In this document: in pieces, positions 667 through 63,885 of the stretch
How the letters are laid out: each line of letters starts with the position of its first letter
Position numbering within the stretch: position 1 is the first letter of the stretch
Assembly: GCA_947561715.1 (NCBI GenBank)
Contig: OX387205.1
Location: 1,493,001-1,557,000, forward strand
DNA length: 64,000 nt
Reading direction: 5' to 3'
From: Ascidia mentula
Lineage: Eukaryota; Chordata; Ascidiacea; Phlebobranchia; Ascidiidae
Translations under genes and position numbers: made by a program
The notes under the pieces: generated by a model
Databases searched by the model: none
Told to the model about the DNA's origin: nothing
The model's input: only the letters and a program-made list of their open reading frames with translations

Positions 667-3600
667 TTATCCTCTGACGTCATCGAGTGCGGGCGTGTGC
701 AAATACAAGAGAAGACTCTCGAACTTTTCTCTCGTTAATTTAAGAATATCGTCGGCCATCTGGGAGTTGGATGTGTAGCGAACACAATCGAAGTTGAAGA
801 GGTCGCGTAAAAAGCTGATCACCTCTTCCTACAAAATCAACAACACCGATGGTAATTTACAGTGGAAAAATTATGTTAGATGAAGTTTTGTAAGGTTTTC
901 ATGATATTCCGTTATTACGCTTAGTTTAAAAACGATTCCAAAATTTCACAATTGGAAAAATATTTAAAATACGTCAATGACGTCAGGGTTTCATGATATA
1001 AAACATTTCGTTGAAAAAAAGATTGCAAATTATTTGTACTTCCAATTTCGACTGTTTCCAGATTAACCAGTTGTTGTTAACCGGTGCGAAATTTCCTATT
1101 AGTGGAAAATTATAGGGTTGTAGGTGGGTAATTAGTCGGCACCGAAATATACAAAAGAATATGGAAAAAGTGCTACAGTTAAATTCTTAGTTAACAAATT
1201 TAAATACCAGTGGGAAATAAGGATACGTTTAAACTTGAAGTGGGAAATGATATAAAAAAAGTTAAGAACCACTGAGTTAAACCGAATCCGGAACTTTCCC
1301 TAAAAACCAAGGGTCGTTTATTCAATTGAACCCACCTTAAACCGCTCACAAACGTCCTTGAGACGACCTTCAGGTCCCAAAAATCCCCAAGCCAACACAG
1401 GCGATACGTGGTCACTGATATCGTACAGATGAGCGATGAAACCGTCCTGGTGCATCAGACGACTTCGTTTGGCCTTTAACACCGACCACACAGCAGCCGA
1501 TAAAGCCTGAAACGTGGGGAAACCCCGGTTTTAAAAAGTTGCACCTCAGTTTGTAAGTCCGCAATTTTTCGTCGGTGAAAAAGAAAAAAACATTTATTTT
1601 GCCTGATTTTGTTATGGCCAGAAAAGAGAATATCTTTTTGAAAACAAAATGCATGCAAAAAGCTGATGTCGTACATTGCGCAGAAATGTTTATACATCAC
1701 ATGTTTAAAAAGCGTTGTCTTCTGAAAGCGGCGAAATAATTTACGCAACCCTTAGTATCACAACAAACAAATATACAAATTCGCACCAGTTTTCATATTT
1801 TATAAACCTAGCCCAGTGGCTGAGTTACCAGTTGCACTGATCACAGCTTACAAGTCGAAACACCGTGCACCTATCTGCAGCTCTCAGTTTGTTCTTTATT
1901 CAAGTCAACATATCCTACCGATTCTTTCAAGGAGTCTGCCAACCATCTGTTCTGCATGATGGACGTTAAAGTACTTGGTGGGTTGGTGAGGTCATCAAAC
2001 GCATCCATGATCAGAAAGTCGAGGACGATATCGTAAAAAGAAAGTTGAACAACCTACAATAATGAGGTATTGTTAAATCACAATGAGCCAAACGACGTCT
2101 TTAATTGAGTTGATTGGTGGACGGATGGATAACTTTTGTGGGGTCAATATTCCCTATATTGCTTCTAACCAAATACTTCTTCAGCATTTGAGCGATTCCA
2201 ACGAACCAAAATAACCACACGGCAACATTACCATACAAGTACTTGATCTTTGTAAACCACTACAATATGGGAGGCCGTACAAATATACATAATGTGTGTA
2301 TTATATAAACATTGGTGCTAAAACAACACAAAAAAACACACTCTTATAAATAAGGACAGTGTTGGCATCCTTCGACCCCTTTGAGTCAACTCTATATTCT
2401 CACCCGTCTATCTTTCAGTTCCTCTTCGATCTTAACCCAATTTACCGGGTCGTTAACAAACTCAATCAAGCGTGCAAATGCACTCCGAAAATCGTCGATG
2501 TTGCGCTCGGCTGCGCACAATATACATTCCATCATGCAACGCCCAGATTCGATCAACCAATCACGAACCGTCGTGTCCTCCAACATGACCTGTAAAAGTA
2601 TTGCTTTTTATCCACATCGCTTTAATATTGGATGGCGACGTGGAAATCACTACTAGGAAAGAGTGAAAAACCGGTCATAAATACTTTGTTTCGGCTGATA
2701 TACGAGGACCATATGAAATATTAGTAGTGCAGATACAGTATATACATAATTTTATATACATCTACTTTATACAAAGTGTAAGTAATAGAGCCAACAATAA
2801 AATATTTGTGTTTCTTGTGCGACTTACAGTCAATCCACTTCTGACGCAGTGAAGTTTGGCGAGAAATTCATCGTCAGAAAAACAATCGAGGAGATCTGAT
2901 CTGTGGAAATTAAACAGAATGTGAGAAAACAATAACTTCTGCACAACACAAGATTGTATGAGACTTATCGTATACAGTATTAAGAAAGCAGAAAATGGTG
3001 TATATTGACGTTTTAGACAATGTTAGTTTCCAGTGCAAAAACACAGAACACCCTCAACAATATCAGCTCTCACTATTTTAAATGCAAAAAATGCTTTTTA
3101 TGATGACTCTTGGTCGAAACAGTTTGGACTGTGTGTAGCACACAGAGTATGTTTATATTGACAACAATTAATCGTCCAAATAAGGCGTTCTTCCATTGTA
3201 TTCACACAACCTACACTCACATTACATCGTGTACGTGTATGAAAAGTATGAAAGGTACCACAAAGTGGAAATCTCTGTGCTTGCCTGGTTAAAAGCTGGA
3301 CTACAACCGCCAGCTGCACTGATGAGCCCTTATAGGGCGAAACAGTGAGTACACGACTGTCCGCAGCTCTCAACGAGTATTATGACTCATTTGCAAAGAT
3401 ACGAAAGTAAAAACACACCTCATAGTTCTGCATTCGACATCCCCGCGCTCAACTGCTTCCAACGCTTTCTCGTAAACCAACAACCTTGTGTGAGCAATTT
3501 CGTCGCTTCGAGTATCCAGAAACTGCAAATGAGAGGATATTTTAACCAAATAAGAGACAATATCTTCATATCCTTCACGTAAAACGAACCTCGCGCGCTG

Positions 3601-6600
3601 ATACGTAGGATTCATTGGATTCTGAATCTTCGTCGGATAGATCGTCGAACCCGGTTAGCGTCATATCCGTATCTGAACCTATGGTAACAATAAAACAATG
3701 GGGAGGTAAGGAAATGAATGCAAATAAGTCAATAGGCAATACGTATCCACTACAAATGACCTTTCCAGCAAAGTCGATATAATTATTGCCAGAACAGCCG
3801 TATTGCAGCAATAAAACATGCCTGGCAATATCAGAAGTAATTTATTAAAAGTGTTCAAACATTCACACATATGACTGAATAACTTGCAGTCCACCATATG
3901 TTGTTAGTACAAATAACAACACTAAGTAAGAAACGTGGTATTAGCGCCAGCCCAAGAAAAATGCTCTATGCCATAAGTTACTGGTTAAGTCATTGGCGTA
4001 AGTTTAGGTCGCTATTTTATTGCTAGGCCTAAAGGTTCTGTGGCGATCGTATTCGTATCCGACTCGTCCAATGAGCGCAAGGTCGTTTATCGGTTTTATC
4101 TTTCTCAATGAACTGAAAACGAAACCCTTTTTTTAATCGAGATTGCATTTCACGAATGAAGAGTTACGTGCTGTGGTGATTAAATAATCCCACGTCACGA
4201 TTAATAGAAATGAGCTACGATGCATTGCACTATCCCACCACACGTAAACACAGTTTAGAAACATGACATAACACCTTGCGTCTACAGGCTAAGAACTAAC
4301 TGCACTGATGACCTTATTACAATTTCACCGGCTGCTGTGACCTACATACCTGTGCCACTATGTGGATACAACATGGAGTCGAATGCATCTTGAAGGTGCT
4401 GAGCATGTTCGATGATGGACTGAAGTTGTTCCTCGAACAATGCTGGGCTTCTTCCATCACCGATCTAATAAGATTTCCTTGTTGGGTGATTTTTTTTGGG
4501 ACAGAAGTAGGATTGTGGTCATACAGAAACGTTTCATCACAAACATTATAAAAATATGCCTGATTGTGTCAAACCAATGTTAAGACAATTTTGACAGCAA
4601 ATGTAACAAGGAAGGAAATAACAAAAATATTAACACTGATACCAGCATTGGAAGGCTTACATAAAAGGAAATATACCGAAACCATAAACAAGAAGAAGAC
4701 AAGTGATAGACTTAAACGGGAGATGTAAAAACAACCAACATTGAAATCATTTTGAGGGAGGGAAGTCATCAGATGTCGCGCGTTTCCTTTAATTTGAGAG
4801 ATTGATTGATGGATGAAAGATTTCTCATCAAACTTTCGATGAAAGTTGAAAGAGAGAAGGAAAAGTTGGATGAAAGAAACGTTTTAGCAGCAGAGAAAAT
4901 CATGCAAGAATGCAAATAAGGTTTAGGGAAAAAAGATCCTTGTTTCTGAAGAAAATCAATACACTTTATGCACAGAAAAATCATCAAAACAGGATTTCTA
5001 CAAAAATCTAACAAAAAAAACACCTGCAAAATGTGAAAAATTATAACTTAATGAACAAATAAAGTGGCAAGATCATAAATTTTAAACCTACACAAAAAAC
5101 ACCAAATATTGAATGTGAAATAGTTACCTTGTGTGTTTCAAGCTCATGCAGAAGTTCGTCTAAGTGACCTTCAGATTGGGAATAATAATTGTTATTTTGT
5201 CCTTTTCCTGCTTCAAATGATGTGGAAAATGAGTTGGATCTTAACATGGACGACCTGCAAACAAAATACTCAATCAAAACTTTTTACTCCAAACACCCAC
5301 TACCACATTCAATATGTTAAGTCTCAAGTCTTTTCCAACAAAATATGTACACGTAATAAATGGAAAAAACAACGGTAACATTACCTCGACAAATTTCTTT
5401 GCAGTCTCTCTTCTACACCGTTTTGTGGCCTTGATTCATCATCAGAATAAAACTTTAATGACTTTCTTTTATTCTGCGTATGTGAGTTTCTAAAGAAGGG
5501 TTTTGTATGTACAATATACAATGACGAAAGTACTTGAAATGAAGTAACTATCACTGACATACCTGGGAGTTTGAGAGTTGGAACCATTCTGGAGAATCGA
5601 TGAAGCCTCTTCCCATTTGTGAAGAGCTTTTTCAAAAGAGTCGACCCCTGGCGATAAGATTAACAAAGTAGCTTCTTTAATTTATTATTAAGAGAAAAAT
5701 CATATTCTAGAAATTAAAAAAACAAGTATATTTAGGGACATTCACATGTTTACAGTAGAGTAATAAACATAATTGTTTGTACCTTCCTGATATAGGACTT
5801 CTATTTGATAAAAACTTTCATCATCTGTGGGTAATGGTATTCTTCCATGTCTTAAAAAAATAGGTTTATGATCACTGCAGAGAATTCGAGCACATAATTT
5901 ATCTTACAGTGACTCAAAGTAAAGTAGTTTTAAAAAATGTTTGTCAGTTTTTTTTGAACAAACAAACCCCTGGTTACACACAACGATTACAAGTGTACCT
6001 TGAGTTTTTGATGCTGCTAACTGCAGACGATGATGATGTGAAACTGTTTAAAAGTGAATTGCGTCGCCGTCTTCTGGCCCTCTTGTGTTTAACACTTCTT
6101 GGGGCTGAAAATGCAAATCTTATAAACTTTCTGCAATATGGAAAGTGGATTTTAATGGTGCTTCTGTGATGAAAGACCTTTGCGATGCAGAATTATATAA
6201 TGATTGTAATTTTGATAAGCAATGTGGAGCCAATAATATGAATTGTGTATAAGCTGCAGAGACCTTTTAGGTCGAAACAGTGGCCATCTGTCTGCAGCTT
6301 ATACACGATTGTAATTTTGTTTGCATTTTGTTTTCATGCACATCCTTCGCACATGCGACAAAAAATTTCTGTGACAAAACGTCATTATCATTGTCTTTGT
6401 ATTTTCCATTTTATCAACTGGTTAAAAAAGTTGTGTATGTACCAGATTGGAAAAAATAACAAAAATTGACCATTTTGCAAAAATTTACCTATAATTCACA
6501 CAACATAAATTAGCCAATGCAATAACATCCAAAAAAAAAACGCTAGGATCGTCCGCACACACACAATAAACGATTGATCGCCGAAAAAATTCCTCCCACC

Positions 6601-7005: not shown

Positions 7006-9136
7006 TTCATGGAAGTTCAAGGTCGATCTTTTGCAATTACAAAAACTTTAACCTTGCATCACCATCACGCGAAAAAGGGCTTTTTCTGGTGATTTCCCGT
7101 TGTGTGATTTCCATAAGAAACAAATAAATTTGTGTTTTTGTATTGCGTAATAAAATATTATGTTTCTTGCATACTAAAATATAACTTTAAAAACGAATAA
7201 TAAAGATACAAGAGAATTGTGAATTTTTTTTGCGCACCCCGCATACTAATTTGCAATCTTTTTAGCTAAGTGGTGAATTTATTGGATTTGCATTTTGATC
7301 CAAGAATGCTGTTTTAGTATTCTATGGTTTAATTGACAAAATGACTCATTATATGGTATGTTGTGATACAGCGAAAATGATTTAAATGTGGGCATACGAG
7401 TTTTGTTGCAGAAAACAGTCACGCGTAATAAGATTTCTATGATATGCTCCTGTGGGAAGTGGGACAGATGCTAAACAATGCGTGATGGCATCACATCCTA
7501 TTTGTTATGCGGTGCAATGTTTTGTTGGTGTTTGACCTGTAACAATTCATCTGTGCAGTTTTGTTGTGAAGGATTGATGGACAAAATAAATACATGGATA
7601 TATAAACAGGAAGACAGGTTTGAACACAGCCGTTGATGCAAAAGTGCTTCTGTTTTATTTTGTTACAAGCCGTTGAGGGGATTGTCTAAAGATCGATGGT
7701 AGCATTGTGACGTAACATTAATCACGCGGTGGGATGCGGACGAGCGCATCGTTCGCGTTTTCCGGTCGATCTGGCGAACATTGAATAGCTTCGAAACACG
7801 TATGCAAAGCATTGTGGCAAACAAGCAGACTTACCTGCTGGTAGTTCGTGATTCTCCAACAGCAACACTCGATGTATTTGCACAGAGAAGGGCAGCGGGT
7901 TTTGATCGCGAAAGCATGAATAATACAGGAGAGAGTTACTCAAGGGCAGACACAGGTCGGCACTTTACGTCGTTTAAGTTTCTGTGCAGTTTAATGGAGG
8001 GCATGTAGAAATGTCACGAGCCATTCCGAAATTTTACGACCCGTTTCGTTTTTACCCAACCCGGATTTTACAAATCGACGCATTGGGACCCAAATTTTCA
8101 AACGGACAAACTAAAGCACAAACGGTGTACAACGCCTACAGGCTCAGAAGTTTATGTATATATTATGTATGTTTGGAAACTACAGTTTACATTTGTGACG
8201 TCATATAGAAACCGATGACGGCTTCACGGCGAAAAATATTTTTGTGTAAAATCAACATCCACAGATCTGTCTGCTACGAACTTTTGATAAGAACACCGTT
8301 TGTGACGTCTTTGAATATTAAGTAAGGTGTTTCTGTGGAGTGAGTTATTCGAAACCACGTTAAATTATATTTGGAACAACAGCGAAATGATGTAAATTAC
8401 TGCGGTTTAATCGATCTGGTTTTAATATATACTTGGCATCTACTGTATTGATATGTCAGAGCAGGCTTGTCAACATAACGCATTTGCGCTCGCATTACAT
8501 CGAAACAGTGCATTGTGACATCAATGCAGGAAACGGTGGTTTTAATTCTGACTCCGTGTGTCAAAATCCTTTACATTCTGGTTTACATGCGTGTTGGGCG
8601 TTTTGTTTTACCTTTGATTTGTCACTGATTTTGTGGGGTTCAAGATAGTAAAATCGTCAGTTTACACTAGTTTATAAATTTTTTATCAAATTATTAAACG
8701 TGCTGTGTCAGTCTTTATATGTCAACGAACTTAATTCTCTTGATTTGGCATTCTTTTATAAAAGACTGACTTTTGTATTCAAAAATGCGCACTAGCTTTC
8801 GCGAGTACCTCTCGCTTCATCAGGTTTAAAAAAGTCTCAAAGGGAATTAAGTTGGTAATTTTTTTATGCAGCCCAGATTTCTTGTGGTAACAAATAAGCG
8901 ACTCAGTTTCTTGTTGCTTTTAACGCTTACCTGGTTCCATGACCACATCTAAAATTGAGCCGCGGCCCAACAGTCTAAACTGACCAATATTTAGAAGTTT
9001 TATAAGTGGGTTGAATTCCTTTTTGATCACTGCAGTTAAAATAAATAGACAAGTGAATAAGATCTAACCCCGGTTTAAACGCTTTGTGACGCAGATACTG
9101 ATTGTAGTTTTGTTTAATTTGTGTTTTCACGCCAGC
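7006..9136. other. Intergenic region between divergent genes
   Basis: Lies between the 5' ends of mitoguardin (minus) and the six-module membrane protein gene (plus), so it should hold both promoters. No open frame here resembles a known protein. The only structure I recognise is the dispersed repeat at 8789-8824. No convincing TATA box was found for either gene. Confidence 0.6.
8789..8824. repeat. Dispersed hairpin repeat, copy 1
   Basis: Contains AGCTTTCGCGAG, a short spacer, then CTCGCTTCATCAGG. The CGCGAG and CTCGC parts can pair. A related block occurs at 32378-32414. Nearby inverted sequences (GTCAGTCTTTATA at 8707 and its complement near 8756-8770) suggest a small mobile element, but its ends are not clear. 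Confidence 0.5.
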
Positions 9137-12100
9137 ATGTCCTTTGCGCAAGCGACGAGAACGCTTGTAGTTCTGTCACTCTGCGTTTCACTCTCATCAA
9201 CCCAAGATGTCGTCACCTCTCCTCAAGCAACTTCACCCACAATGCCTTCACCAGGTAACAACACGTAAACAACCGCGGGCTTGTTTGAACTCCACATAAC
9301 CCCGCACTTTCAGTTGTAGAAATCGAAACGACTCAAGAAGCCACGAAAGCAAATGATGACGTCACAACGCAACCAGGTTTTGAGACGACTGCGGCAGAGG
9401 TGACGTCACAGGTGCCCGCGCCGGACGATTCTTTGTGCATCAAAGCTTACGGAACCTGTTTAACAAAAGATGAAGGGGAAAAGTGCGCGGACGATCATGC
9501 AGCTGTTCCAGGGATTTGTGGAAAACCACAGTTGATTTGTTGTGTTCCAAGTAGGTGGATTTTTAATCTTAGTTGAAAGGTTTTTGTGACAATATTATTT
9601 CCGCAAAACAAAGCGACTCATGTTGTAGTAAAGGGAATGCTATGTTTGATGTATCGGTTGTATTATGTATATCAATCATACTTAATGACACAGCGTGAAC
9701 ATCGATGACATAGTGATGGGTGGTAATGTGCAAGCCAGTAATGACAAAATGTAAATCCTTCTTTACGAATTGAAATAACTGACAAATCGCAAACCAGAAT
9801 CGTCCTTTAGCACAATTTTACAAGGAGGGTTTGAAACCAACGATTAAGTAAGGTGTAGACTCACATTTGTTGCTCTCAACTTTTGGCTCTTCATACCTCA
9901 ACAGAGGACGTTACAAATAAGATTGCAAGCCAATGTAAATCGCAGCCTTTCTTTATGCCATCGGCAATAACATGACATTGTTTATCGCAAGCTCCTTCAC
10001 TTTTCGTTATGGAATTACTGGTGACCGATGTTTAATCTTCAAAAAATATTCGGCCTTTTCATAGGAATACATTTAATTAAACGCAGGTCAAAAGGAGGAA
10101 TCGACTTGGTTTCAATCAGATGGAAGTTGTACGTTAGCATACGGAGTATGTCAGATTGACAGCACGCCGTGTAACGGGGTTTACGACCAAGCACAGTGCG
10201 GAGGTCCGGATATAAGGATGTGCTGCTCGCCAAGTAAGTATTGCACACGTGGTGTGCGTAGGGCCACGCGCTGATCTATCAATTGTTGTCATTTGAAAGT
10301 TGTGAGTTAAGTTCTTGGAAATAAAGGTTTCAAACAAATTACAGCCGATTGTTGCTTAGTTTTGTTTCGACAATAAATAAGGAGATACAAAGCTATAGCT
10401 GTCATCCCTTTCTTGACACTGGTTGAGTTAGATACCAACATTTATAAGTTTGTTATCGCTAAACATTTATACTTAGAAATTTGGAAGTAAACCCCATCTC
10501 TTTCTTGGTTAAACTGCACGTTATTTGTGTACACGTGAATAACAACGAGATTATTGTCGCAGACGCAGAAGAAGTATCGTCATGGTCGGCTGGCGATGAA
10601 CCTTGCCAGCAAGCCCTAGGTGTTTGTCAACACGGATCCAACCCATGCCAGGGAACTTACCAAACTGGAACCTGCGGAGGACCGACTTTAAGAAGATGCT
10701 GTCTTCCCAGTGAGTTTCCGTGCAAACCGTTGCCACTCAACGAGCTATATTTGCATTGTGACGTCATGCAGGTGTGAGCCAGCAGCAGACATGGAGGACA
10801 TTGGACGAAGGATGTGACGAGAAGTGGGGGGTTTGCCAAGCGGATCATTCACCTTGCGATGGCGGAAGTTACGTCACGGGTTTGTGCGGCGGACCGGAAG
10901 TGAGGCAATGTTGCGCTCCATGTGAGTTTTTCATCGTGGATTAAAAAGGTTTGCGAATTTACAACGACTTCCGTACTTTTGATGCAGCTGACGTCACCGT
11001 CAGCGGCTGGTCAAGCTTGGAAGCCACCTGTATGACGTCATTCGGCGAGTGCGTACATGCGGGCATTCACTGTAACGGAACCAAGTCTTCCACAATGTGT
11101 CAGGGTCCCGCTTACCGCGTCTGCTGTGAGCTTGGTAAGATCGACTGAAGCCTTAGTTTAAGCACGCTTAACCCAGCCCGTTTTGTTCGCAGGAGAATCG
11201 GTCGTAGCTTCGTGGCAAGAATACGATGTGGAATGCAAGACATCGCGCGGTGTTTGTCAGCATACGTCATCACCGTGTGACGGTGTTTTTGATACGAGCA
11301 AAGCGTGCGGGGGACCCCCGGAAAGAAAATGCTGCGTTGCCCCGGCAACAGGTACCTGTGTAACCAGTTATGAAATAATTGATAAACCTTGGGAAAAAAA
11401 GTCTCATATTAAGCTGTAGACAGGTGGCCACTGTTTCGAACTGGAATGTCTCACCGGTGTAGCTGGTGATTGTAGCACAGAACTAGCTTTTAAACAAGCA
11501 GGCAAAGTTTCCACTTTTGCTTGCTAGTTCAGGGCTATAGTCTACAACTGCACTGATGAGACGTTTCAGGTCGAAACAGTGCGCACAACTGCCTGCATCT
11601 CAATCATTATCGCCTTTTGCTTCTGTAAGTCATATTGACCAACACTTTCACACACGGCATATACCAAGGGTTAATGATGAAACTACTTATATTGCAGCAC
11701 CTCCAAAGACGGTACCGAAAGCTGGTTCCGATAACACCTCGAAAGGTCGTTCAAGGTCGACGATCTTGTTGGTGACGAGCGGACTCTTGTTGGCCGTTTC
11801 CCTCGCTCTGTTGCTACTGTTTCTCTGGAAGAGGGTAAGACCCAATATTCCCCTTTGTTCACGCTTGCAACGACACCAAAAATTATCCAATTCTTATTCG
11901 GTTTTATTACTGTCGATTAGCAAGTGCGTGATTTCAAGAAAGCAAAATCTTATCATGCTCAACATGATTTTTTAACAACTTCACTTAGCAGCTGGGCCAC
12001 TGTTCCTACATAATACTGGTCTCTATGCTTTTACAAATTAACTTAAAAGTTACAACCCAGGTCCCTCTTAACACAGCAAGGATAAAAGTAGTAGAAGCGG

Positions 12101-14205: not shown

Positions 14206-17200
14206 CTAAAATAACAAGTTTACCTTTAACAAGTAACAGAGGCTTGTTTGGAATATAAGTGGCAAGGAAATAAAAGCTACAACCTAAAAATCCAATATTT
14301 TAATAGGAAGGAATTTGTTGAGATTTTTTTCAAAGTTTTGCCGGAAAAAAATCTTGAAACCAAATTGCAACCAACTGTATAACGATAATATTTTCAGTGT
14401 CGGTAACAAACCCTTCCACGGTACGATTTTTGTTAAACCTGAAACATCCACTTTTTCTCAGCGCTCCTTTCTTAATTTTTATTATTATTTACTGATGTAA
14501 AAACAGTACGAACACCGAGAAGGAATTAAACCTTCTAAAATACAAATTGTCCCTGAATCAAAGTCAAGGTTTAAACATTACTATCATCATTTATTTTATT
14601 TTAAGTAGGGTCGCAATCTTAATGTTAAATTTACCATTCTCGTCGGTGGTGGCGTGGACGCTCGTGGTGGGAACCGGTGTCGTCGTCACATCTGCAACAG
14701 CACGGAATAATAAAATCTACAACAAACTCAACACTGAACAACTTACTGTGTAATGGAGGGCCGTCATCGTTACAGAGGTCTTCGTTGCAACAATCCACCA
14801 CGCACGTGGTAAAGTTCGCCCGAAACGGAAGGTTGGCGTCTTCCAATAACGTCATCAAACTGTCGCATGACGTCACCGGGCAGGCTATCGACGGAACGCA
14901 CGTCCCGTACGTCACACTCGCTGACGTCATAAAAACAGTTCCATTGTGTTTTTTTGGAAGTTTATACAATTTTGTGTGGAAAAATACAATGCAACAGCTC
15001 GACATATTGATATAACAGATGGGTGCCGGATGTGATAACCTTGAGGTGAACAACACAAGACAAGCGTGCATATTATACATTATATGTTCAGCTTATATAC
15101 TATGTTACTTTATAATGGCCTCATTTCCTTTTTGTTAAACTCGATCATTGAGCGATTTTAGTTATTAACGTATAAAAAAAAGACCTCCAAAAACTGTCTG
15201 TTACTTGAACAATGCGGTGTAGTCATAGGCGCCTAGTCCGGGGGGGCAAGGGGGGCGGCGCCCCCCCAGGTTTGTCAAAAAAAAACGAGTGGCTATTACG
15301 CGCGTCTGTCCGAACCATGTAACTCGTCGCATTTGTAACGTTCGAAGAAAAAAGACCTAAAAACAATGTGTTTCTTAATAACAAATTATGACGTCATAAC
15401 ATATCCGCCCCCCCTGGAAAAATGAAAACTAGGCGCCTATGGGTGTAGTATACCATGACTTGGTATGAAATGATTTGACACCCGTCCTGAGTTGAGTTGT
15501 CACATCTGGTTTATGTTTTTATCGGTGCCCAAGATATTTCATTTATTTATTGTTTATGTAGCAGTTTTTCTTGCGCACAATGCAAACGAATTGATTTTGT
15601 CTACTAAGCCTAAAATAAAAAAAGAAACAACATAAACTGTCTCGAAGATCCTCATATATAGACGTTTCGGTTACAACCCCAACAGATACTCGTATTACGT
15701 AATCACCTTCAAATAAATCTCCGGTCTTTTTTTCCTGGGCGTCGGCAATCGTCTTCACAGTGAGACACTGATGTTTGGGCGGACATTCCATCCTCTCCTT
15801 TACTTTTACGATGGGTCTTGCGTCAGAGAAGGCTTTCATAACCGAATAACACCTGCTGCTGTACGTGGTTTCAATCTCAACTGTGGAAGGTGGAATTTGC
15901 TTAAAGCAGTATTGCAGTGGTTTTTACTTGTAACCAAACTTGCACGATCCGTTTTTGAAAGAGCTTCCAAACTTTAAAAAAAAACTCAGAACGATTTTTG
16001 CAAAAAGATATAAAACAGAAAACTAATATAACAAACTTTAAAACAACAAAGCTTATCACTTTATAAAAAAGTATAATCTATTCAAATAACTCCAGACAAA
16101 GGAAATTACAGTACGTGGCCTTATCTAGCTCATTATGGATCTTTAAATTTGACCCGCCGGGTTTTGGTTTTTAAATAAAAGCTTACAAATGTAAACACTT
16201 TTCGTCGACTTTCCTGCTATCCTCACAAAAAAGTACAAAGTCAGGCAACTGTGGGTTTTGTGCGAAGTAATATTTTCAAACTCACCAAGTTTAAAAGTTG
16301 CCAGGAATCCCCCGGCAGTTCCACTTCCGTCACTACTGAACGTCACGTACAAAGAACCAGAACTGGACGTTATGACGTCATCAGGTGATTGTATTACGTC
16401 AGATAGAGACGCTCGCAATGGCGAAAAGGCGCTTGTTCCATCATAAACCTGAGAAATGATTTTCGAACTCGACATTGTGTTATATCGTCCCTGACCAACA
16501 GAATTACAGACAGGTTGTACACACTGTTTCTCAGGTAAGGTCTCATCAGTGCAGCTGCTTTTACACTACCAGGCACACAAATTTTAACTTTGTGGTACCT
16601 TTCGGTAAAAACCAAGCAGTCATTTGGCCGTAGTGCGCTCCACGTGGTTCGTCTATGTTGATTGGTTTTGATTGGTTTGGTACCCAACGGATCGGCGATT
16701 GGCCGAAAGGTACCACAAAGTGCCAGCTAGTCTGCGCCACAGTCACCAGATGCACTGATGACATCTTACAGATAAAAACAGTGTGTACACCTGATTTGAA
16801 TTATATTAAATAATTGTAAGTCATCTGCTCTTTCATGTAAGACTGTAATCAACTGTGGGTGCAGCTGAGTGACATAAACAACTTTCAGTATTTTGCACCT
16901 TCAAAAAGTCGCAACATTTTTCCGTGCGAAAGTCGAGAATTTCGAGTTGAACTTGTTTGTCTTCATCACGTGACACGATCAGCCAATGACATTCGGCGTT
17001 GCTAGGGTACTCAACCGGGTAACCAGGGGAACTGAATTCGAACGAGTGGGGGGTGGCGGTCCGGGTAAACCCGCATGACCCCCTGTTCAGGTCGTCGGGA
17101 GCTGGGGAAAGTTTGAAGATTGGAATAAAACAGTGTTTCCAAAACTTATTCTTAAACTTTTTTGATCACCAAGATAACAGAGAAGTTATTTGTGGACCTT

Positions 17201-26200: not shown

Positions 26201-29200
26201 CCCTCAAAGATCTACAAATATAACAAAATAATTACTTTAAAAATTTACTTTTTATAGTTTTTTTTAAAGACAACTGTTTTTTGCCCTTGAAAAAAATAAA
26301 AAAATTTTTGATTAAAAGTATAATCAAATAAAAGCATTGTTGAGAATATTTTTTATTTTTTCTGCTATAAAAAATGCATAAAGGTCATAGATTTACCTCA
26401 AGATAATCACAACATGGTTCTGACTGCAGTTCCCCGATGGTAAATTGCACAACATTTCCAGGGAGCGTTGATATTTTCCACTCACAAACAATCGATGAAG
26501 GATAGTTTTCAGGATAGTTTGGTGAATTTAAGTCATAAACTCGGCCATCTGGAATTACGAACTCAAACCCACATGCATGCTCTGTGTACAAAAGAAGCAT
26601 TAAAATTCACGCAAAATACAAAACACTCACAAATAAAATACACCATTTAACCCACTTACTCTATTGCAAAAATTCCTCAATATTTTATACCATTCACCAC
26701 AATTCAACAGCCTTGTTTAATTACCATACAGAGCTCTAAGCACAGACAACTTACCAACAGCATCAAAAGAGGCTTCAAATCCTTTTACAGTATTCAAAGT
26801 GTCAATATGAAAAAACAAGGTCAGGAAACTTTGGTCGGAGAACACAACTTGAGGAGACGGTTCATTTCCATTAAACTCTTTTATGATCGAGGACTGAGAA
26901 TGTGATTGACTCCGCGAGTTATAGACCTACAAGCATTTTCAAACTTTACTGGTAAAGTTGTTGGTGACTTAGGATGACAAACAAAAAAGTAGCAATGAAT
27001 AAAAGAACGTTTAAATTTATCTTCAACATTTAAACCTACCAACAATGAAGAAACATCTGTAATGTAGAACACCAGAAACATAAATAAAAAAAAATACTTA
27101 CAAGGGAAAGATATTAAAACAAATGGATGTTGCACACAACAAAACTATTAAAACAAAATAAGTTTTTTTTTTGATAAGCAAAATGAGCGAAAGTCTTTGC
27201 TTGGGCGTTTGGTCAGCAAAGTCGTCTGATTGTCACGCCAGCTGCACTGATGAGACCTTTTAGGTCGAAACAGTGGCCATCTGTCTGCAGCTTATACACA
27301 ATTAATTTTCTTTAATCAAGTAAAACTTACAATTATGGAATCACAACAAGGATCCAGAGTGAATGAAGTGAAGGTGATCCTGACGTGGTATGATGTTGGT
27401 GCTGTGATTGTCCACCAACAGTTGGAACTAACCGACAAGCCAATTTCTCGAGAAATGATCATTGGAGTGGACCGACCAATGTGTGCATTCAACTGTGACT
27501 CACTGCATGATGTTATGGGGCGAACTAAAAGAAATTATTATCACTTTTTAACTCAGCAAAACTTATTATGATAATAGACTCCAGAACATGGTAACATCTG
27601 GGTTTAACCCAATCACACACCAAGGTCAAAAAATTGCCACAATGACCTACTGGATGAATAAATGTCTACAATGTCTTAAGGGGTTTCTTCTTGAGCTTTA
27701 TTGCAAATAACTGTTGATAATGTCAATAAAATCAATAAAAATAACATTCAAAAAATGAACAAAAATCCAACAAACAAATTGACACATGTCAGAAACCTGG
27801 CTGTCATTTCTCAATATTATACCTGTTGTCGTTGCTATAGAAGGCCCCACAGTGGACGTCGTTGTTCTTTGAGTTGTTGTAACAATTCGACGAGCAGCTT
27901 CATATGCAAGAAAATATTCAGTAACCATAGTTACAAATTACCCCAAGTTAAATGAAGAATGTACTGATCTTCTGGCATAAACGTACTGTATTTTTACAAT
28001 GCAATATGCCTGGCAGCAACAGGAATTTTGAAGTAGTTGTTATTACCTTGTCGAAAATTGATTCGAAAACCAGTTCCTGGATTAGAAGAGTTGGTCAATA
28101 GAATTATTCTCGCTTCATCGTTAATTGTAAACCTCCGTGAAAATGCATTTCCACTGAGCAGTGCTAACCTTGTTCCACCATCTTGTATCTGTTGTAATCA
28201 AGAATTTTGTTGAGAAATTTTGCAAAAAACCTGCTCTTTTGCAAATTTTAAATTGTATACTTTATTTTCAAATAATGTTTCTATTTTCAAAACATAGAAG
28301 ATGGAAGCAAATGAGCCATAAGGATCAGTGAACTGCAAAAATTATCAACAGTAAATTAAATTAGGTCTTTATTAAGTTGAATATGATGGTTGTACAAATT
28401 ATAAGAAAAATTTTAAAAAGACAAAATTTACAAGAAGTGTTTCTGGTCAATTTTAAACTTGTTAATCAACCTAACATTGTTTTGGTTTGTGGATTTTTGT
28501 ATGTTTATACCTCTAAGAAGTCGCAACATCGTGGTGTTCTTAATCTTTCCAGTGTTACATCAATTGAAAGGAATTGAATGCTACGAGTTATTGTCCAAAC
28601 ACATCGGATGCCTTGGGGATATCTTCCAGGCCAGTTTGGTGAAGTAAGTGTTTGGATACGTTGAGTAGCCACCAAACTTTCACCACACACAGCTAAATGA
28701 TATTACACTATTAATGTGACTAGTTCCATACATGTGGCAGACACCAGCGGCACCAATTTATTAAGATAGGTATTAGGTTGTATGAAATTCGCTTGTGAAG
28801 GCAAAATCGAGTTTTCAAATATTTTTATTTAACTAAGTACAGCTTTTATGTAGAGTTTAAATGCAAGATTTTTTTACCGTAAATTGAAAGAGGGTCTGCT
28901 GTTGCACTTCCTGGCACTGAAAAAGCACATAAAAAGCTTGAGAAACTAGCAGAAGTAATGCAATGCTTACGCATAGCAAGGCGGGATCGCCCCACTGCGC
29001 AGGCCCTTTATATTTGGCGATCACAGCACTAATATTCTGATCATAAGGTTCACAGGCTTCGCAGCCAAGGCATTGCAGCCAAGCTGCGAAGCCTGTGAAT
29101 CTTGAGAAACTAGAATATGTTATAATAAAAACTTACAAACACTTGATTTACTTTCGGATTAACCTAGTTTGTGACAACATTGATATGTTGTAAAAAAACA

Positions 29201-32200
29201 ACAAATTACCACTTCTGTAAACCATCCTGAAGCCAGCTCTGTTCACAGAAACATCCGAGTCAAATGTGATTCTGAGAGGAGAGTTTGGAGAAGAAATAAA
29301 TCTTTCAACATTCAACAATCTTCCACTTAAACGCGAAAGTTTTTCATTTCCCTCAAACACCTGCATGAAATTACAACATGAAAGTTTTGTGGATGGAAAT
29401 TTTTTGAATAATTGAATTTCCGGTCATGGCTGTCAGTGATTTGGTATCAGATTTGTTTGAAATTCTTTTTTTTTTAAATCCGATATCTTGACAGCAAAAA
29501 AAACTCTGTTTTCACAAATATAACAGGTGTTGTCACTTATTAAAATATTCGTAATCTATGATCAAAAACGTTGTTGCCATGTAATTACATTATGTAAGTC
29601 AAGTCTTTTGGCAGTAAGAAGATTGCTAACAGGCATTGCCAGTATTAAATATTCAAATGTAAGTTACACAATGTTATGAGCAAAAATAGTTGCTCTCCGC
29701 TATTTAACAAGGATTGCTAATTGAGGAGATTAAATGTGTATAAGCTGCAGACAGATGGCCCCTGTTTGGACCTAAAAGGTCTCATCAGTGCAGGAGATTT
29801 GAAAAGATTAAATACTTGTCATTTTCGGCTGCATTGGTAATTTTAAAACCGAACAGGAATTTAAATCCAATACTGCATTGGAATATACCAAAAGCCTCCA
29901 TAGGGATATATACCTCTATAATATCGCAGCATGTTTGGGTGTCAATTAAGCCTATACTTAATTGAACTCTTTCTCCATTTTGGGGAATAATCAACCAATC
30001 ACATTCAAGATTGCTTCTGTATAGCCCAGGATAGCCAGGCGGATTGATAAGTTTGGCTTCCGCTGCGGCAAGCACATCTCTCTGACATTCACCATCTGCA
30101 AAAAAATAATAAAACTTTTCATTTAAACAATTCAGTATGATTGGTGGCAAGAACTGTAAGTGTCTGAACATAAAATGGCTTCAGTACCTGTCATACAACT
30201 TGGGAAGCTTAATCATTGTCAAAATGTGAAACCAGTACGCCCAAGTAAAATGTACAACTATCTCTCACACAATTGCAGGTGTAAAATATTGTGCAGTTAC
30301 AAGATTGTTTGCCTTGTTGTATGTTGATTAAAAAAATACATAATATTATGTTTTCCTCACCCTGTCTCCTTGGTGGAGTGGTTGTTGCAATGGTTGTGGT
30401 CAACGCAGCCTCATCTTGTTGGGGTAAAGTTGAAGCACTTGCTTCCTCTACAAACAATGTGTGTTACAAATAAACCCATTTAATATCAAAAAAGGCACAT
30501 TTGAAGTCAATATTTTAAAACTTTCAGACTGGAGTCAGCTGGTAACAATAAAAAATATGGTTACAGCAAGAAGGTACGTTTGATATTTATTTTTCGGGTG
30601 ACAATATTTACAATAGTACGGATCCAGCGGGGGCCATTGCCCATCATAGAACATGCCATACAATATAAAAAGGCGGCAGTAGCAGACACAGGGGTTGTCT
30701 GAAAATCGAATTTTGTTCATCACTCGCGTGCTGTTGTTTGGCACATCGATTTTATTGTGTCACAATGAGTTCAGAGTTCAGATTGGACAGTTATTCTGTG
30801 TAACAACTCGCATGGCGTTTACAATTTTATGGGTTTAAAGGTCACCTTGAGCAGTGTAAGTAATGGAGAAACCGGCAAAGTTTAGAGATGAATCCGATTT
30901 AAAATTGAGAGCAACGAAGCTGTTGTCAGAGGAGAATTGAGTCGGACGAACAGTTCCCGCTAACGTTCGAATCAGAAGATTTGCATTGTTGGTTGTGGTT
31001 GATGAATCGTAAACCTATAGGAAAAATAAGCAGCCTGTTGTAAATCACAAGAAAGCGTTCATTGTTTGAAATTCCGATACGCAAAAGATACAAGTTTACG
31101 TATTTTTTTAGTTATTTTTTTGCAGGAGTTTTTAATGACGAAACGCCAAATTTTTTTTTGGATAACTCCTTTGTTTCAGACTGTTTTAATAATATTACCA
31201 TGAAACCTAACCAGCAATGTGTTTGCGGATTTCACTTTTTTACAACGCAAAAAAGTTTTTTTTAGAACGCAAAACAAATATAAGAAGAACAAAATAATAA
31301 TTATCACCTTAAGCTTGTCGCAACAAAATTCCGTTTTGAAGCTCACAATATTGATGAGAAGTTTATGATGACTTGGAGCTTTTATAATCCACCAGCAGTT
31401 AACGCTTGGTTCGTACGGCGAGGGAAAATTCGGAGATGATATTGTTTGGGTCACTGTCGGTAACGCAGTAAGATCCAGGGAACCACATTCTGAAAGAAAT
31501 TACTGTTTAACGCTCACTTTCCCACAAGAAATTGATGACGCAAATTATTTTGGGGAGTAGGGGGCATTTAATGGCAAAACTGTCAGAAAATTAAAAAAAA
31601 AAAACAAGCAAATGCCCTCCCCCGAACGATTGAACTAATTGTAGCATCGCTGTTTTTTCGCAAAATTGTCATTTTTGTTCCTCTATTTCAGAGATATTGC
31701 TGTTGCATAGCCTAAAGCCCCTTTAGCGTAAGTGAATTTGTTGATAATGGGGTGTGGAATTGTTCAGTAAACAAAAGAATTTCGGTAAAAGCTTAATTCC
31801 GTTGTGCCCAGTCGGCAAAAAATGCAAGTAAAAAATAGGTCGCAAAAAAAATAGGCCGAGTCATAATTTTGTTTCGAAAAAAAAATAAAGGTAAAAAAAC
31901 AACCACAATCTGTGCGGCGAAAAGGTCACAGACAACACTTGGAGCCAAAACACACTTGCAAACTTGAGTTTGACATTTTGCGCTACTTTATCAAGTTTAA
32001 TCAACACTGGGCCTTTGCGTGCAGCTGCGTGACTTTAAACATAACATTTTTAAATCGTTGCCACAACAGGGGCTTCTTTCATGAGCCTGATGATAAATGT
32101 TAACTTATCGAAGGTCGGATAAAAACACGAATTTATTTTACCTGAATCTTGGGCCGACACAAAAGTGAGGAGAAAGAACGAGTTGACGAGAAGGATTTGA

Positions 32201-60900: not shown

Positions 60901-63885
60901 AAATATATGGTCCTGAATATAGTATTACTTGTTTTGCATTGTGAAGTACAAGCTAGTCTGGCTCCAGAAACCACCACCGCTAAAACTGCACCATCAGATC
61001 CAATTTCAGGTACATAAAAAACATATATTTAATAAAATAATATTTCGCAACTCATATCAACAGTAAATGTAAAAACTGGCTATTGAAGGTTTTTAACAAA
61101 TGACTCTTATTAATAAGCTTCTATAATTTTTTATTCAGTTTGCAGCAGAAGTGAGCTTGGGCTTGTGCCAAATAATGTGGTCACAATAACTTCACCCAAT
61201 TACCCACAAAGCTATGGAAATAATCGGAACTGTCAGTTGCTGCTCACGGCACCGTATGGTTACAAGATTCAACTCAACTTCATTGTCTTTGAAACAGAAT
61301 CTTGTTGCGATCAACTGAGAGTAAGCAATCATCTTTATTCTTCACTTAGGCCACAATTCATTTCCAGCAACCTGTATATTTTAGCTCTTAGATGGAAGAA
61401 TTGTATCCAGCAGGGCAGATGTGATTGCAGACATGAGAGGAACTTTAACTCCACGCATAGAATTTTCGAAACAACGTTTCATCGTTTTGGATTTCAGAAG
61501 TGACAGTAGTTTAAGTTACCAGGGATTTACAGTATTTGCTACAGCAGGTACATCATTTATATGCATGTGTCCTTTAATGTAACACCAATTGACCAAGACA
61601 TATTTGTTGGACTATGGTAGATAGTTTGGAATTAGGTTTATTGTGATACAAAACACCACATTTCATTTTTTGTTTGTTGGTCAAAAAACTAAAGCCATTG
61701 CTTTTTTTCAATTCCATAAACAGGAATATGAAATTAAACCTTAATCATGTACAAACAGAACAACACAAAATTATAATTGATATGTCACATCTGTTGCATA
61801 AAATTTACCATGGATAGTTACTAATCCAGGAAGCAATAAATTGATTGTCTCATTGCAGTTGCTGACACAGGAACCACATTTTCACCGGACGGTATGTTAA
61901 AAGTGTTGTGCTTTGAATTTTAGTAGCTGTCTGTCTGACATTTTTACCCATTGTTATGAATACTGTCAAACCCTAAATAATACATTTTCCTATTAAATGT
62001 TATTATTTCCTCAAACGTAAACAACTTTTCTCAAGTATTTTTCGTTATATGTGCAGTCTTTATGCAGCAGGGAAGTGTTACATTAGGGTGTTTAATTTTG
62101 CTACTTCCAGAGTGACAACAAATTTAGTTATAAGATTAAAAAAAAGTTCACTCCAAACACTAGACATGTTTACCAGATGTTATTTCTGACTTTTTAATCA
62201 GAATATAACATTACAATGATATTGTACTCTCCAAGATTTATAACTTTCCTTTAAAAAAATTACACATATTTTTTACTTCAATCATGTGCATTTCATGTTA
62301 AATGTATTGTTCTGAATACAATCTTAATTTTGTATTTTTTGCATTGCAAAGTACAACCAAGTCATGTACCAGAAACGACAGCTGCTGACGTCACAACTGC
62401 ACAGTCAGATCCAATTTCAGGTACAATATAAAAAAACCATCAATAAAATGTTGTTTCCAAACATAAACACAGTAAGTACAACTGGGGATAACATATTTTT
62501 TAAATATGACTTGTGTTAATATTACGCGTCAGTAACATTTTTATATTTTTTGTTCAGTTTGTAGCGGAGGAGAACTTATGCTTTTTCCAAACTATGTCCG
62601 TACTATAACTTCACCCAATTACCCACAAACCTATGGGAATAATCTTAACTGTCAGTTAGTGCTCATGGCTCCGTTCGGTTACAAGATTCAACTCAACATC
62701 ACCGACTTTTACACTGAATATTGTTGTGATAAGCTTAAAGTAAGCATTTCCAACATGCATTTGAACCATACTTTACTTGCAGAATAATCAGTTATTCTTT
62801 TTAGCTTTATAATAACCGGAGGGCATCCAGCGTGGGAGTTCCCATTGCAGAACTGAAAGGGAGTATTGGAACGCCCCGCATAGTGTTGTCGAAAGAATTC
62901 TATATCCTGTTGGACTTCAAAAGTGACAGTGGCTTAAGTTACAAAGGATTTACTGCTTTTGCTACAGCAGGTATAGTAATTTCTTCAGGTCAATTAGTGT
63001 GGTATTAATTAAACTAAAACATTTTTGTGCAACTATGCAGAATATAAAGTGAGCTGTAGACAGAGCCACTGTTTCAATCTAATACATTTCATCATTGCAG
63101 CTAGGTGATTGGTAATAATTTTCTGGCTAAATAGACAGAAAAAGACTTTGATATGGCAGTAACTATACAGTCACCAACATCCTCTATTTTGCTGGCAAGA
63201 TCGTCGTAAGTCACCAAGCCATGTGGAATGTACATATTAGGTCGAAACAGTGGCCACTGTTTCAAGCTCACTGTGAACATTATTGGCTCATTTGCTTATA
63301 TATGTAGATAGATAAATTTGCATGTAATGATCACAAGTTTTGCATTAAAGTTTATTGCAATTGATTCTTGACGATCGAGTTGATGATTTCAGTATTGTTT
63401 TTTATGCATTTTTGCATAAATGTAGATAGTTGTATTCCACATCTGTTGGACTGACTGTACCATAAGTAGGTTAAAAATGATCTACTAACAAAATATAATA
63501 TCTCATTTCAGTCCCCGACATAGGAACCACAGATTCAACAGATGGTAGGTTAACATATTGCACTTGTAAAAGTAGATGTCTATAAAAATTTTTAACAATT
63601 TCTATTTTTAGTTGCCACACAAACAGAAAGATTGACCACAACCCCAGGTAAATTTTTATGAAATGCATTTATCTGGTAGCCACTAATGAAACTATATTTT
63701 TAGATGTTTGTGGATTTAACACTGATGCTTCAATATATCCCTTACCCTTGCGAACCCAGGGATATCCAACATCTTATAGGAATAACCTGAGGTGTGAGTG
63801 GACACTCCGTGCACCACCACGTGGGTATCAAGTGAAGTTGACAATATATAGCGGGGATTCTGAAAGTTGTTGCGATCGTATACAG
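42952..63885 (+). CDS. Very large secreted LU/CUB mosaic protein, 3' end outside window
   Basis: Fifty-nine exons in one frame, 2605 residues so far: 42952-43015, 43805-43942, 45226-45546, 45656-45685, 45749-45942, 46731-46890, 47376-47402, 47659-47694, 48173-48196, 48480-48661, 49011-49170, 49401-49427, 49492-49679, 49898-50066, 50138-50230, 50302-50427, 50505-50917, 50974-51124, 51451-51513, 51572-51712, 51876-52091, 52172-52216, 52290-52471, 52554-52728, 52802-52870, 53415-53558, 53634-53852, 53933-53977, 54051-54232, 54315-54489, 54564-54632, 55198-55341, 55417-55635, 55716-55760, 55834-56015, 56098-56272, 56347-56415, 56981-57124, 57200-57418, 57489-57533, 57590-57771, 57840-58020, 58088-58144, 58266-58447, 58911-59091, 59299-59358, 59646-59684, 59963-60112, 60485-60688, 60947-61009, 61139-61320, 61385-61547, 61859-61891, 62352-62420, 62558-62739, 62805-62970, 63512-63544, 63612-63647, 63704-63885. 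Signal peptide MKLRGIFCLLMWTTVLFSST. Module order: LU, CUB, CUB, CUB, LU, CUB, LU, CUB, LU, CUB, LU, CUB, LU, CUB, CUB, LU, CUB, CUB, CUB (cut by the window end). Short linkers rich in Thr/Ser/Pro may be alternatively spliced. Confidence 0.83.
43970..44213. mobile_element. hAT-like non-autonomous element
   Basis: Left end CAGGGTTGTCCAAC; the complement of the right end is TAGGGGCGTCCAAC. Starts 27 bases after the donor of exon 43805-43942 of the LU/CUB gene. No clear target duplication. Confidence 0.5.
45146..45190 (+). ncRNA. Hammerhead-family copy lacking stem II
   Basis: TGCTGCACTGATGA is followed directly by GGTGGCCATCTCTGTCTACAGC; stem II and GAAA are deleted. It lies 36 bases before exon 45226-45546 of the LU/CUB gene and shares the upstream GGCAAGATCGTC with the element at 63.2 kb. 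Confidence 0.55.
50302..51124 (+). other. LU-CUB unit with fused LU/CUB exon
   Basis: Exons 50302-50427, 50505-50917 and 50974-51124. Elsewhere in this gene the second LU exon and first CUB exon are separate, with linker exons between. Here one 413-base exon carries the end of LU (CNITCCNENLCND), a Thr/Ser-rich linker and the start of CUB (GCGGEFDVD...). This is either an ancestral fused state or loss of one intron. Confidence 0.8.
53415..57270 (+). repeat. Recent 1783-bp tandem duplication of an LU-linker-CUB-linker unit
   Basis: Exons, introns and even minus-strand shadow frames recur at an offset of exactly 1783 bases (53415 to 55198 to 56981; 54051 to 55834; 54315 to 56098). Read side by side, the copies from about 53.55 kb to about 57.27 kb are nearly identical, including introns; I noticed only a two-base change in the intron near 54252 versus 56035. 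An older, more divergent copy lies at 51572-52870 (offset about 1761 bases for its CUB part). Each unit carries one whole LU domain, a 45-base linker exon, one CUB domain and a 69-base linker exon. Confidence 0.9.
57590..58020 (+). other. Divergent CUB module lacking the usual CC pair
   Basis: First exon 57590-57771 keeps the opening Cys (MCDNVDI) and the Cys before Trp (DCWITI), but the usual E-x-CCD-x-x-Y is EAKYDDFY. Second exon 57840-58020 is normal (SDSS...GF). Both vicinal cysteines are lost together. Confidence 0.85.
63050..63276. mobile_element. Foldback element with inverted hammerhead-like arms
   Basis: Minus-strand copy 63050-63112 (ATGATGA core, GAAACAGTGG, GTC) and plus-strand copy about 63205-63276 (GGTCGAAACAGTGGCCACTG). 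Outer ends AGTGAGCT and AGCTCACT are complementary. It is in an intron of the LU/CUB gene. Confidence 0.55.

What the first reader, a model, noticed from the sequence alone, without database searches (positions are those of the whole stretch)
27240..27292. Intact type I hammerhead ribozyme in an intron
The sequence satisfies every conserved position of the hammerhead core (CTGATGA, GAAA, GTC) and all three helices, with a fully paired stem I. The motif was read directly; that such motifs self-cleave is established for the family. It is antisense to the host CUB/VWA gene, so it would act only in a plus-strand transcript, such as one from its own element.
Basis: partly seen in the sequence, partly recalled or inferred. 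Interest (0 to 1): 0.8.

Follow-up and report, generated by a model that had tools for sequence, protein, structure and literature searches.

The report
Hammerhead retrozyme with Penelope-type insertion footprint
The 53-base self-cutting RNA motif is one of over a thousand near-identical copies of a tiny non-coding mobile element in a tunicate (sea-squirt group) genome, and the way the examined copies sit in the DNA suggests they were pasted in by the enzyme of another family of jumping genes (Penelope-like elements), a step that had been proposed and that we did not find shown.

Summary
The motif is real and exactly where stated (27240-27292, +): full core, stems of 7, 5 and 4 bp, predicted cut after C27285; 0 hits in 100 shuffles of the window. 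It misses Rfam's gathering score. It is not a solitary intronic ribozyme. The host's mitochondrial code marks a tunicate. Its genome holds 551 exact and 1,313 near-exact (up to 3 mismatches) copies of the 45-nt core, 0 in the reversed control, in 284-285-nt non-coding tandem units: a metazoan retrozyme. Of 62 insertions parsed, 42 are a minus arm followed by a plus arm, 0 the reverse. Outer ends fall at two sites downstream of the ribozyme, A (about u16-18) and B (about u41-50). All 34 palindromes with both ends classed have one A and one B end; 8 were not classed. A resident Penelope-like element shows the same in 4 of 4. That supports mobilisation by a Penelope-type reverse transcriptase priming on both target strands. 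The window copy is a truncated insertion with one ribozyme. Cleavage, circular RNA and the enzyme itself are untested.

The parts
27240..27292 (+). type I hammerhead ribozyme: stem I 27240-27246/27286-27292, core CTGATGA 27247-27253, stem II 27254-27258/27262-27266, GAA 27267-27269, stem III 27270-27273/27281-27284, predicted cut after C27285
   Evidence: family of copies
27189..27303 (+). plus arm of the retrozyme insertion, unit positions about u190 to u18 (outer end at site A)
   Evidence: BLAST match 27191-27312, u190..u27, 93%; end placed at u18 by reading the sequence; the automatic parse left this end unclassed
27172..27188 (-). short minus arm, about u46 to u30 reversed (outer end at site B), about 14 of 17 positions by eye; below the automatic threshold
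   Evidence: sequence read; inference
27304..27316 (.). possible degraded target duplication with about 27160-27171 (about 9 of 12 by eye); not accepted by the automatic test
   Evidence: one search found no convincing duplication for this copy
6213..6310 (.). second retrozyme insertion: minus arm 6213-6260 (outer end B), plus arm 6259-6310 (outer end A), 13-nt target duplication GATTGTAATTTTG; ribozyme incomplete
29729..29793 (-). single-arm retrozyme copy, outer end classed A, no convincing duplication
3308..3368 (+). diverged hammerhead relative; stem II GCCC/GGGC shows a two-sided change against GACC/GGTC
11410..11600 (.). diverged palindromic pair of hammerhead relatives (minus 11410-11468, plus 11545-11600)
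16505..16557 (-). diverged hammerhead relative (another weak one on the plus strand at 16746-16783)
1827..1882 (+). diverged, decayed hammerhead relative (77%)
63052..63289 (.). diverged palindromic pair (minus 63052-63107, plus 63237-63289)
8685..8833 (-). fragment of a Penelope-like element (78.5% to the 2,870-bp PLE unit, u72-214) with a hammerhead-like motif

Best explanation
The motif is the hammerhead of a small non-coding retroelement (metazoan retrozyme, 284-285-nt unit) of a tunicate. Inferred cycle: multimeric transcripts are cut by their hammerheads; monomers are ligated to circles (or uncut multimers serve directly); a Penelope-type reverse transcriptase/GIY-YIG endonuclease makes a staggered break at an AT-rich site and primes cDNA from the 3' ends of BOTH target strands, starting at two internal RNA sites just downstream of the hammerhead, A (about u16-18) on one strand and B (about u41-50) on the other. 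Each arm runs a variable distance, sometimes more than one lap; the two arms are joined, often at short microhomology, leaving a palindrome with both 3' ends outward between target duplications mostly of 12-15 nt. Shown here: copy number, unit, palindromes, A/B ends, duplications, excess of shared variants between the two arms, same anatomy of a resident PLE. Inferred: RNA cleavage, circle, identity of the enzyme. The window copy is a short, old insertion with one intact ribozyme and no predicted function for the host gene.
For: Tandem units: of 14 same-strand neighbours within 2.5 kb among the first 100 listed exact copies, 13 are spaced 284-286 nt or 570 nt. 42 of 62 parsed insertions have a minus arm then a plus arm, 0 of 62 the reverse; 34 of 34 palindromes with both ends classed are A/B (20 B left, 14 A left), 2^-34 under independent even choice. 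Exact shared flanks of at least 9 nt in 41 of 63 rows against 0.75% of 2,000 mismatched pairings; 34 clean duplications (up to 1 mismatch, microhomology included) are 10-17 nt, 27 of them 12-15, AT 81.7% against 62.5% in flanks. 40 distinct inner junctions in 41 palindromes and only 1 of 41 with matching inner coordinates, so they were made separately and not by hairpin self-priming. Over 38 palindromes (32 with overlapping arms, 3,105 positions) the two arms of one insertion differ by 1.2% against 2.7% (sd 0.4) between insertions, and share 49% of variants against 10%. A resident PLE (RT + GIY-YIG) has 4 of 4 examined palindromes A/B with 12-15-nt duplications; among 121 GIY-YIG hits (150 of 382 candidates scored) the 17 opposite-strand neighbours within 10 kb are all minus-then-plus. 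Published PLE enzyme: cuts and extends both strands, prefers AT-rich sites, starts at two adjacent internal sites that bound the optional 30-40-bp tail (PMC11167929).
Against: No PLE was found that shares the retrozyme's A/B sequence; the resident PLE's A/B region differs in sequence, and its hairpin is no better than shuffles. The retrozyme A/B hairpin is significant in one stretch (letters of L030, z -3.5, 0 of 200), not in a 59-nt L010 stretch that lacks part of the stem (z -0.4), and its window ranks 98 of 284 in the unit. As a circle the unit folds only mildly better than shuffles (z -1.9 and -1.5). 8 of 42 palindromes were not classed at both ends; L082, L087 and L021/L022 have an outer end inside the ribozyme (about u263-273). 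One plus-then-minus pair exists among 100 listed exact copies, beside 10 minus-plus. The shared variants are few (19 in all, 7 from L038 alone; several insertions share none), and gene conversion between arms could make them. In PMC11167929 hammerhead mutants of a PLE still insert in vitro and unprocessed RNA is called the dominant substrate, which speaks against a need for cleavage or circles. Insertions were chosen by similarity to two queries (62 parsed of 1,313 near-exact cores), the first of which contains the ribozyme. No RNA data.
Confidence: 0.8

Rival explanations
1. Retrozyme mobilised by a LINE, the palindromes being twin-priming products.
For: Twin priming also gives inverted 5' parts, and LINE target duplications can be of this length (both recalled, from no call).
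Against: Twin priming as I recall it leaves one outer end at the RNA's 3' end; here both outer ends lie at the two start sites, one A and one B, in 34 of 34 classed palindromes. No poly(A) or simple-repeat 3' end is seen in the copies printed. The same A/B pattern is seen in the resident PLE. LINEs of this genome were not examined.
Confidence: 0.08
2. The unit is not a separate element but a derivative of a PLE's own pseudo-LTR (solo pLTR) spread by that PLE.
For: PLE pLTRs carry minimal hammerheads and tails (passages of PMC7761336 and PMC3846280). A related but diverged hammerhead lies about 455 nt beyond the ORF of another PLE copy (L060/L061).
Against: Of 20 GIY-YIG loci compared with the unit, only L059 (a 70% copy upstream of the PLE) and L041/L048 (the hammerhead only) matched beyond noise. 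The L060 hammerhead lies in a stretch of about 260 bp that recurs 3.1 kb away with no PLE coding seen there, so it looks like another repeat.
Confidence: 0.1
3. A palindromic DNA (foldback or MITE-like) transposon that happens to contain a hammerhead.
For: Inverted arms, target duplications, high copy number.
Against: Arms differ in length and inner coordinates (40 distinct junctions of 41), there are tandem laps inside arms and 20 single-arm copies of 62; a cut-and-paste element would keep one structure.
Confidence: 0.03
4. The palindromes arise by self-priming on an antisense template, as suggested for PLEs in PMC3846280.
For: The same head-to-head arrangement was described there, with palindromes at the joint.
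Against: Self-priming predicts equal inner coordinates of the arms at the joint; only 1 of 41 is within 3 nt. It does not explain A on one side and B on the other.
Confidence: 0.05
5. The window ribozyme has been taken over to cut an antisense RNA of the CUB gene.
For: Intact motif in an intron.
Against: 551 exact copies of the core lie in the genome and nothing marks this one; no RNA data were available.
Confidence: 0.02

Closest known systems
Metazoan (non-LTR) retrozymes, PMC7229834
   Same: Type I hammerhead in low-GC non-coding tandem repeats (here 284-285 nt; GC 46% in the L016 unit), many copies, target duplications longer than 4 bp.
   Different: Stem I fully paired without the usual loop; insertions mostly palindromic with two alternating outer ends. 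Parts 1-4 of 6 of the text were read; a term search of the main text finds 0 of 'inverted', 'tunicate', 'ascidian', 'Ciona', 'urochordat'. Its supplement was not looked at.
Penelope-like elements (PLE), PMC3846280 and PMC11167929
   Same: Head-to-head inverted copies, a tail of 31 or 30-40 bp at one of the two inverted ends, target duplications, two internal RT start sites, both target strands cut and extended.
   Different: The retrozyme codes for no protein (longest stop-free stretch 70 aa in three units) and shares no clear sequence with the PLE family of L063/L064.
Minimal hammerheads of PLEs and Terminons (PMC7761336 passages)
   Same: Type I hammerhead without room for the archetypal loop-loop contacts.
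   Different: Keeps a 4-bp helix III and a fully paired 7-bp helix I; the passages describe variants lacking helix III or the loop contacts.
Plant LTR retrozymes (PMC4918200, search listing only; features as summarised in PMC7229834)
   Same: Non-autonomous, with hammerheads, spread through RNA circles.
   Different: Type III hammerheads, circles of 600-800 nt, LTRs.

Membership tests
Type I hammerhead ribozyme | Conserved core CUGANGA ... GAAA ... UH | tested here: met
Type I hammerhead ribozyme | Three helices with helix I open-ended | tested here: met
   7, 5 and 4 bp; by energy alone the hammerhead fold is second, -16.0 against -17.4 kcal/mol
Type I hammerhead ribozyme | Rfam covariance model at gathering score | tested here: not met
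   0 hits; best 24.1 of 48.5 bits, to the type III model. A curated threshold, not a chemical property of the class
Type I hammerhead ribozyme | Covariation in the stems of diverged relatives | tested here: inconclusive
   11 sequences: 84.2% of cells paired against 14-39% when slid; covariation score reached by 4 of 500 shuffles, but paired cells by 47 and pairs with two-sided changes (3, all in stem II) by 70 of 500
Type I hammerhead ribozyme | Loop 1-loop 2 tertiary contact of canonical members | tested here: not met
   stem I has no internal loop; minimal members described in PMC7761336 also lack it
Type I hammerhead ribozyme | Self-cleavage | not testable with these tools
   needs an in vitro assay
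Metazoan retrozyme | Type I hammerheads in tandem repeats of about 150-450 bp | tested here: met
   284-285 nt
Metazoan retrozyme | GC below 50%, no coding region | tested here: met
   GC 46.1%, longest stop-free stretch 70 aa in three units of L016
Metazoan retrozyme | No LTR, primer-binding site or polypurine tract | not tested
   no tool run for these
Metazoan retrozyme | Target duplications longer than 4 bp | tested here: met
Metazoan retrozyme | Expressed as linear and circular RNA | not testable with these tools
   no RNA data
Penelope-like element (as a member) | ORF with RT and GIY-YIG domains | tested here: not met
   unit is non-coding; the resident PLE has both
PLE-type insertion footprint | Head-to-head inverted copies with outward 3' ends | tested here: met
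   42 of 62, 0 reversed; 10 minus-plus and 1 plus-minus neighbours among 100 listed exact copies; PLE hits 17 minus-plus, 0 plus-minus
PLE-type insertion footprint | Two alternative 3' ends some 30-40 nt apart, tail on one of the inverted ends | tested here: met
   retrozyme about 29 nt apart, 34 of 34 classed A/B, 8 unclassed; PLE about 40 nt apart, 4 of 4
PLE-type insertion footprint | Shared RNA start-site sequence or hairpin with a resident PLE | tested here: not met
   no sequence match to the L063/L064 family and PLE hairpin no better than shuffles; other PLE families were not examined for their ends

The most novel reading that the evidence does not exclude
In PLE-type insertion the two internal start sites are not alternatives but partners: in each two-arm event one protomer of an RT dimer starts at A on one target strand and the other at B on the opposite strand, both copying the same (often circular) RNA, and retrozymes travel by this route. 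That would explain the optional tail and the head-to-head copies of PLEs and show which kind of enzyme moves animal retrozymes.
Probability: 0.5. Interest if true: 0.78.

Novelty: new variant of a known kind. Interest (0 to 1): 0.62.

Why it matters
How animal retrozymes get back into DNA is open: PMC7229834 and PMC7761336 name PLEs as likely candidates on co-occurrence and shared hammerheads. The footprint here (palindromes whose two ends alternate between two start sites, as in a PLE of the same genome) is sequence evidence of the insertion step itself and gives a precise, cheap test in other animals. It also offers a simple account of two oddities of PLEs, the tail at one end and head-to-head copies. 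I found no report of this for retrozymes in the searches, which cover open-access papers only; supplements were not looked at.

Tried and rejected
Rfam as sole judge: no hit at threshold, outweighed by copy number. Tandem Repeats Finder lists no array of this unit in the window (one unrelated row); the window copies I parsed are short. A loose regular-expression scan counts one place several times (33 matches; shuffles mean 11.5, largest 32), so a stricter descriptor was used. PLE hammerheads: my strict regular expression found none in the 20 GIY-YIG loci; the PLE motif (CTGACGAA...) has an extra base before stem II and was not modelled. A shared A/B hairpin in PLE and retrozyme looked attractive but is not supported for the PLE, so it is not claimed. 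Arms that end near u17-21 after one lap (L093, L076, L077, L087, L094, L002) suggest a shared circular template, but the numbers are small. The L060/L061 hammerheads as PLE parts: doubtful. Clustering of inner ends at about u230-255 is expected from the query, which contains the ribozyme.

Rows dropped: before, 12 locus ids that repeat another row's place were skipped, as were pieces under 60 nt in all (among them the window copy at 3310) and the window pieces at 1827 and 16537; one search also dropped L071 (same insertion as L067). L018/L019, L028/L029, L021/L022 and L002/L003 look like segmental duplicates and remain among the 62, but none is among the 34 A/B palindromes. Searches dropped one of each such pair; one search also dropped the diverged window pairs. 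In one search overlapping BLAST pieces of L067 count some copies twice, so the within-arm difference of 0.5% is somewhat too low.

Full report
OBSERVATION. The 53 bases at 27240-27292 (+) read as a complete type I hammerhead: stem I 7 bp, CUGAUGA, stem II 5 bp, GAA, stem III 4 bp, C27285 at the cut. A strict descriptor finds only this place in 64 kb on both strands and nothing in 100 Markov shuffles. Rfam gives no match at gathering score and only 24.1 bits to the type III model. By energy alone a different pairing is better by 1.4 kcal/mol. Minus-strand stretches on both sides match the CUB domain, the two nearest just below Pfam's cut-off, so the motif lies antisense in an intron; no VWA domain was seen in the 18 window stretches scanned.

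HOST. The window lies in a 195.8-Mb genome of 79 contigs. COX1 on contig C79 has AGA/AGG aligned with glycine in 13 of 16 places, ATA with methionine in 10 of 17 and TGA with tryptophan in 5 of 5. AGR = Gly is the ascidian mitochondrial code (table 13; established knowledge), so the host is a tunicate. The species was not identified.

FAMILY. The 45-nt core occurs 551 times exactly and 1,313 times with up to 3 mismatches, 0 in the reversed control. It sits in non-coding units of 284-285 nt (GC 46% in the L016 unit), in dimers, trimers and longer arrays. Copies within an arm differ by about 0.5% (29 pairs; somewhat understated, see Tried and rejected). This matches metazoan retrozymes as described in PMC7229834 (parts 1-4 of 6 read).

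INSERTION ANATOMY. With u1 the base after the cut, 62 insertions were parsed. 42 consist of a minus arm followed by a plus arm; none is the other way round. Among the first 100 exact places, 10 neighbours within 2.5 kb are minus-plus and 1 is plus-minus. In the 34 palindromes with both ends classed, raw BLAST outer ends fall in two zones: A, u13-32 with 24 of 34 at u18 or less, and B, u40-58 with 17 of 34 at u44-50; the larger values shrink when the target duplication is taken off. All 34 have one A and one B end (20 with B left, 14 with A left). Eight palindromes were not classed at both ends: L010 would be a 35th by eye; L082, L087 and L021/L022 end inside the ribozyme, L014 looks nested, and the diverged window pairs at 11410 and 63052 cannot be placed on this unit. 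Single-arm copies end at A or B (8 A, 10 B, 2 unclassed of 20). Exact shared flanks of 9 nt or more occur in 41 of 63 rows against 0.75% of mismatched pairings. The 34 clean duplications (up to 1 mismatch, microhomology included) are 10-17 nt, 27 of them 12-15, and 82% AT.

WHAT MADE THE PALINDROMES. Inner junctions differ (40 distinct of 41) and their two coordinates match in only 1 of 41, which argues against copying of a fixed palindrome and against hairpin self-priming. At 23 of 39 joints the arms overlap by 1-5 nt, at 3 they abut, at 12 there is filler of 2-24 nt and at 1 an overlap of 11, as in end-joining with microhomology. The two arms of an insertion resemble each other more than arms of different insertions (1.2% against 2.7%) and share 49% of variants against 10% (38 palindromes, 32 with overlap), so they seem to copy the same RNA or source; the shared variants are 19, 7 of them from L038, and gene conversion is a caveat. 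By the lengths, 85 of 87 classed arms run across the cleavage joint (all but the B arms of L010 and L033), so these templates were circular or uncut there; the query favours such arms. Arms reach up to about 1,680 nt (L067).

COMPARISON WITH PLEs. The genome has many GIY-YIG hits: 121 listed (150 of 382 candidates scored), with 17 opposite-strand neighbours within 10 kb all minus-plus and 0 plus-minus. One family with a 2,870-bp unit (RVT_1 and GIY-YIG) forms an array of two minus and about 2.6 plus units with a 159-nt unmatched joint. Its four palindromes examined end at u173-177 on one side and u213-217 on the other, with duplications of 12-15 nt, two of them with one mismatch. Ends of other PLE families were not examined. 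[quoted passage not shown] PMC11167929 (parts 1-2 of 4 and passages) shows a PLE protein that cuts and extends both strands, prefers AT-rich sites, starts at two adjacent internal sites that bound the tail, and is predicted to be a dimer; it saw no difference of start site between strands, and its hammerhead mutants still insert. The retrozyme footprint is the same kind. The partner use of A and B on opposite strands is my inference from the 34 + 4 cases; an assay that pools molecules would not show it.

WINDOW COPY. By eye it is a palindrome too: a 17-nt minus arm (27172-27188, outer end B) and a plus arm (27189-27303, outer end A) with a degraded duplication; the automatic parse saw only the plus arm and left its end unclassed. 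With one ribozyme it cannot release a monomer. A better-kept copy at 6213-6310 has both arms, A/B ends and a 13-nt duplication but an incomplete ribozyme.

LIMITS. No RNA evidence. No PLE with a matching A/B sequence was found, so the enzyme is inferred from likeness of footprint. The hairpin over A/B is supported for one retrozyme stretch (z -3.5), not for a shorter one, and not for the PLE.

Noticed in passing
51896-57422: Sequence of about 1.76-1.78 kb repeated roughly three times in tandem at 91-95% identity.
   Followed up: no
24421-24637: Inverted repeat (68-nt arms, 85%) that Rfam scores weakly as MIR5048 (E 0.0017, 32 of 160 bits); perhaps a short palindromic repeat, not a microRNA.
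   Followed up: no
8685-8833: Penelope-like element fragment with a hammerhead-like motif that has one extra base before stem II.
   Followed up: partly
L063 and L064 (G000:C67:6133000-6150000): PLE array of minus, minus, plus, plus, plus copies, 99.98-100% identical over 5.7 and 7.4 kb, suggesting more than one lap of a circular or multimeric PLE RNA, or an assembly effect.
   Followed up: partly
18873-31499: Row of minus-strand stretches matching CUB; at 38772-39293 a plus-strand CUB and at 37542-37796 a weak activin-receptor-like match below cut-off.
   Followed up: partly
L060 and L061: Near-duplicate loci with a palindromic PLE of another family and diverged hammerheads about 3.1 kb apart in another repeat.
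   Followed up: partly
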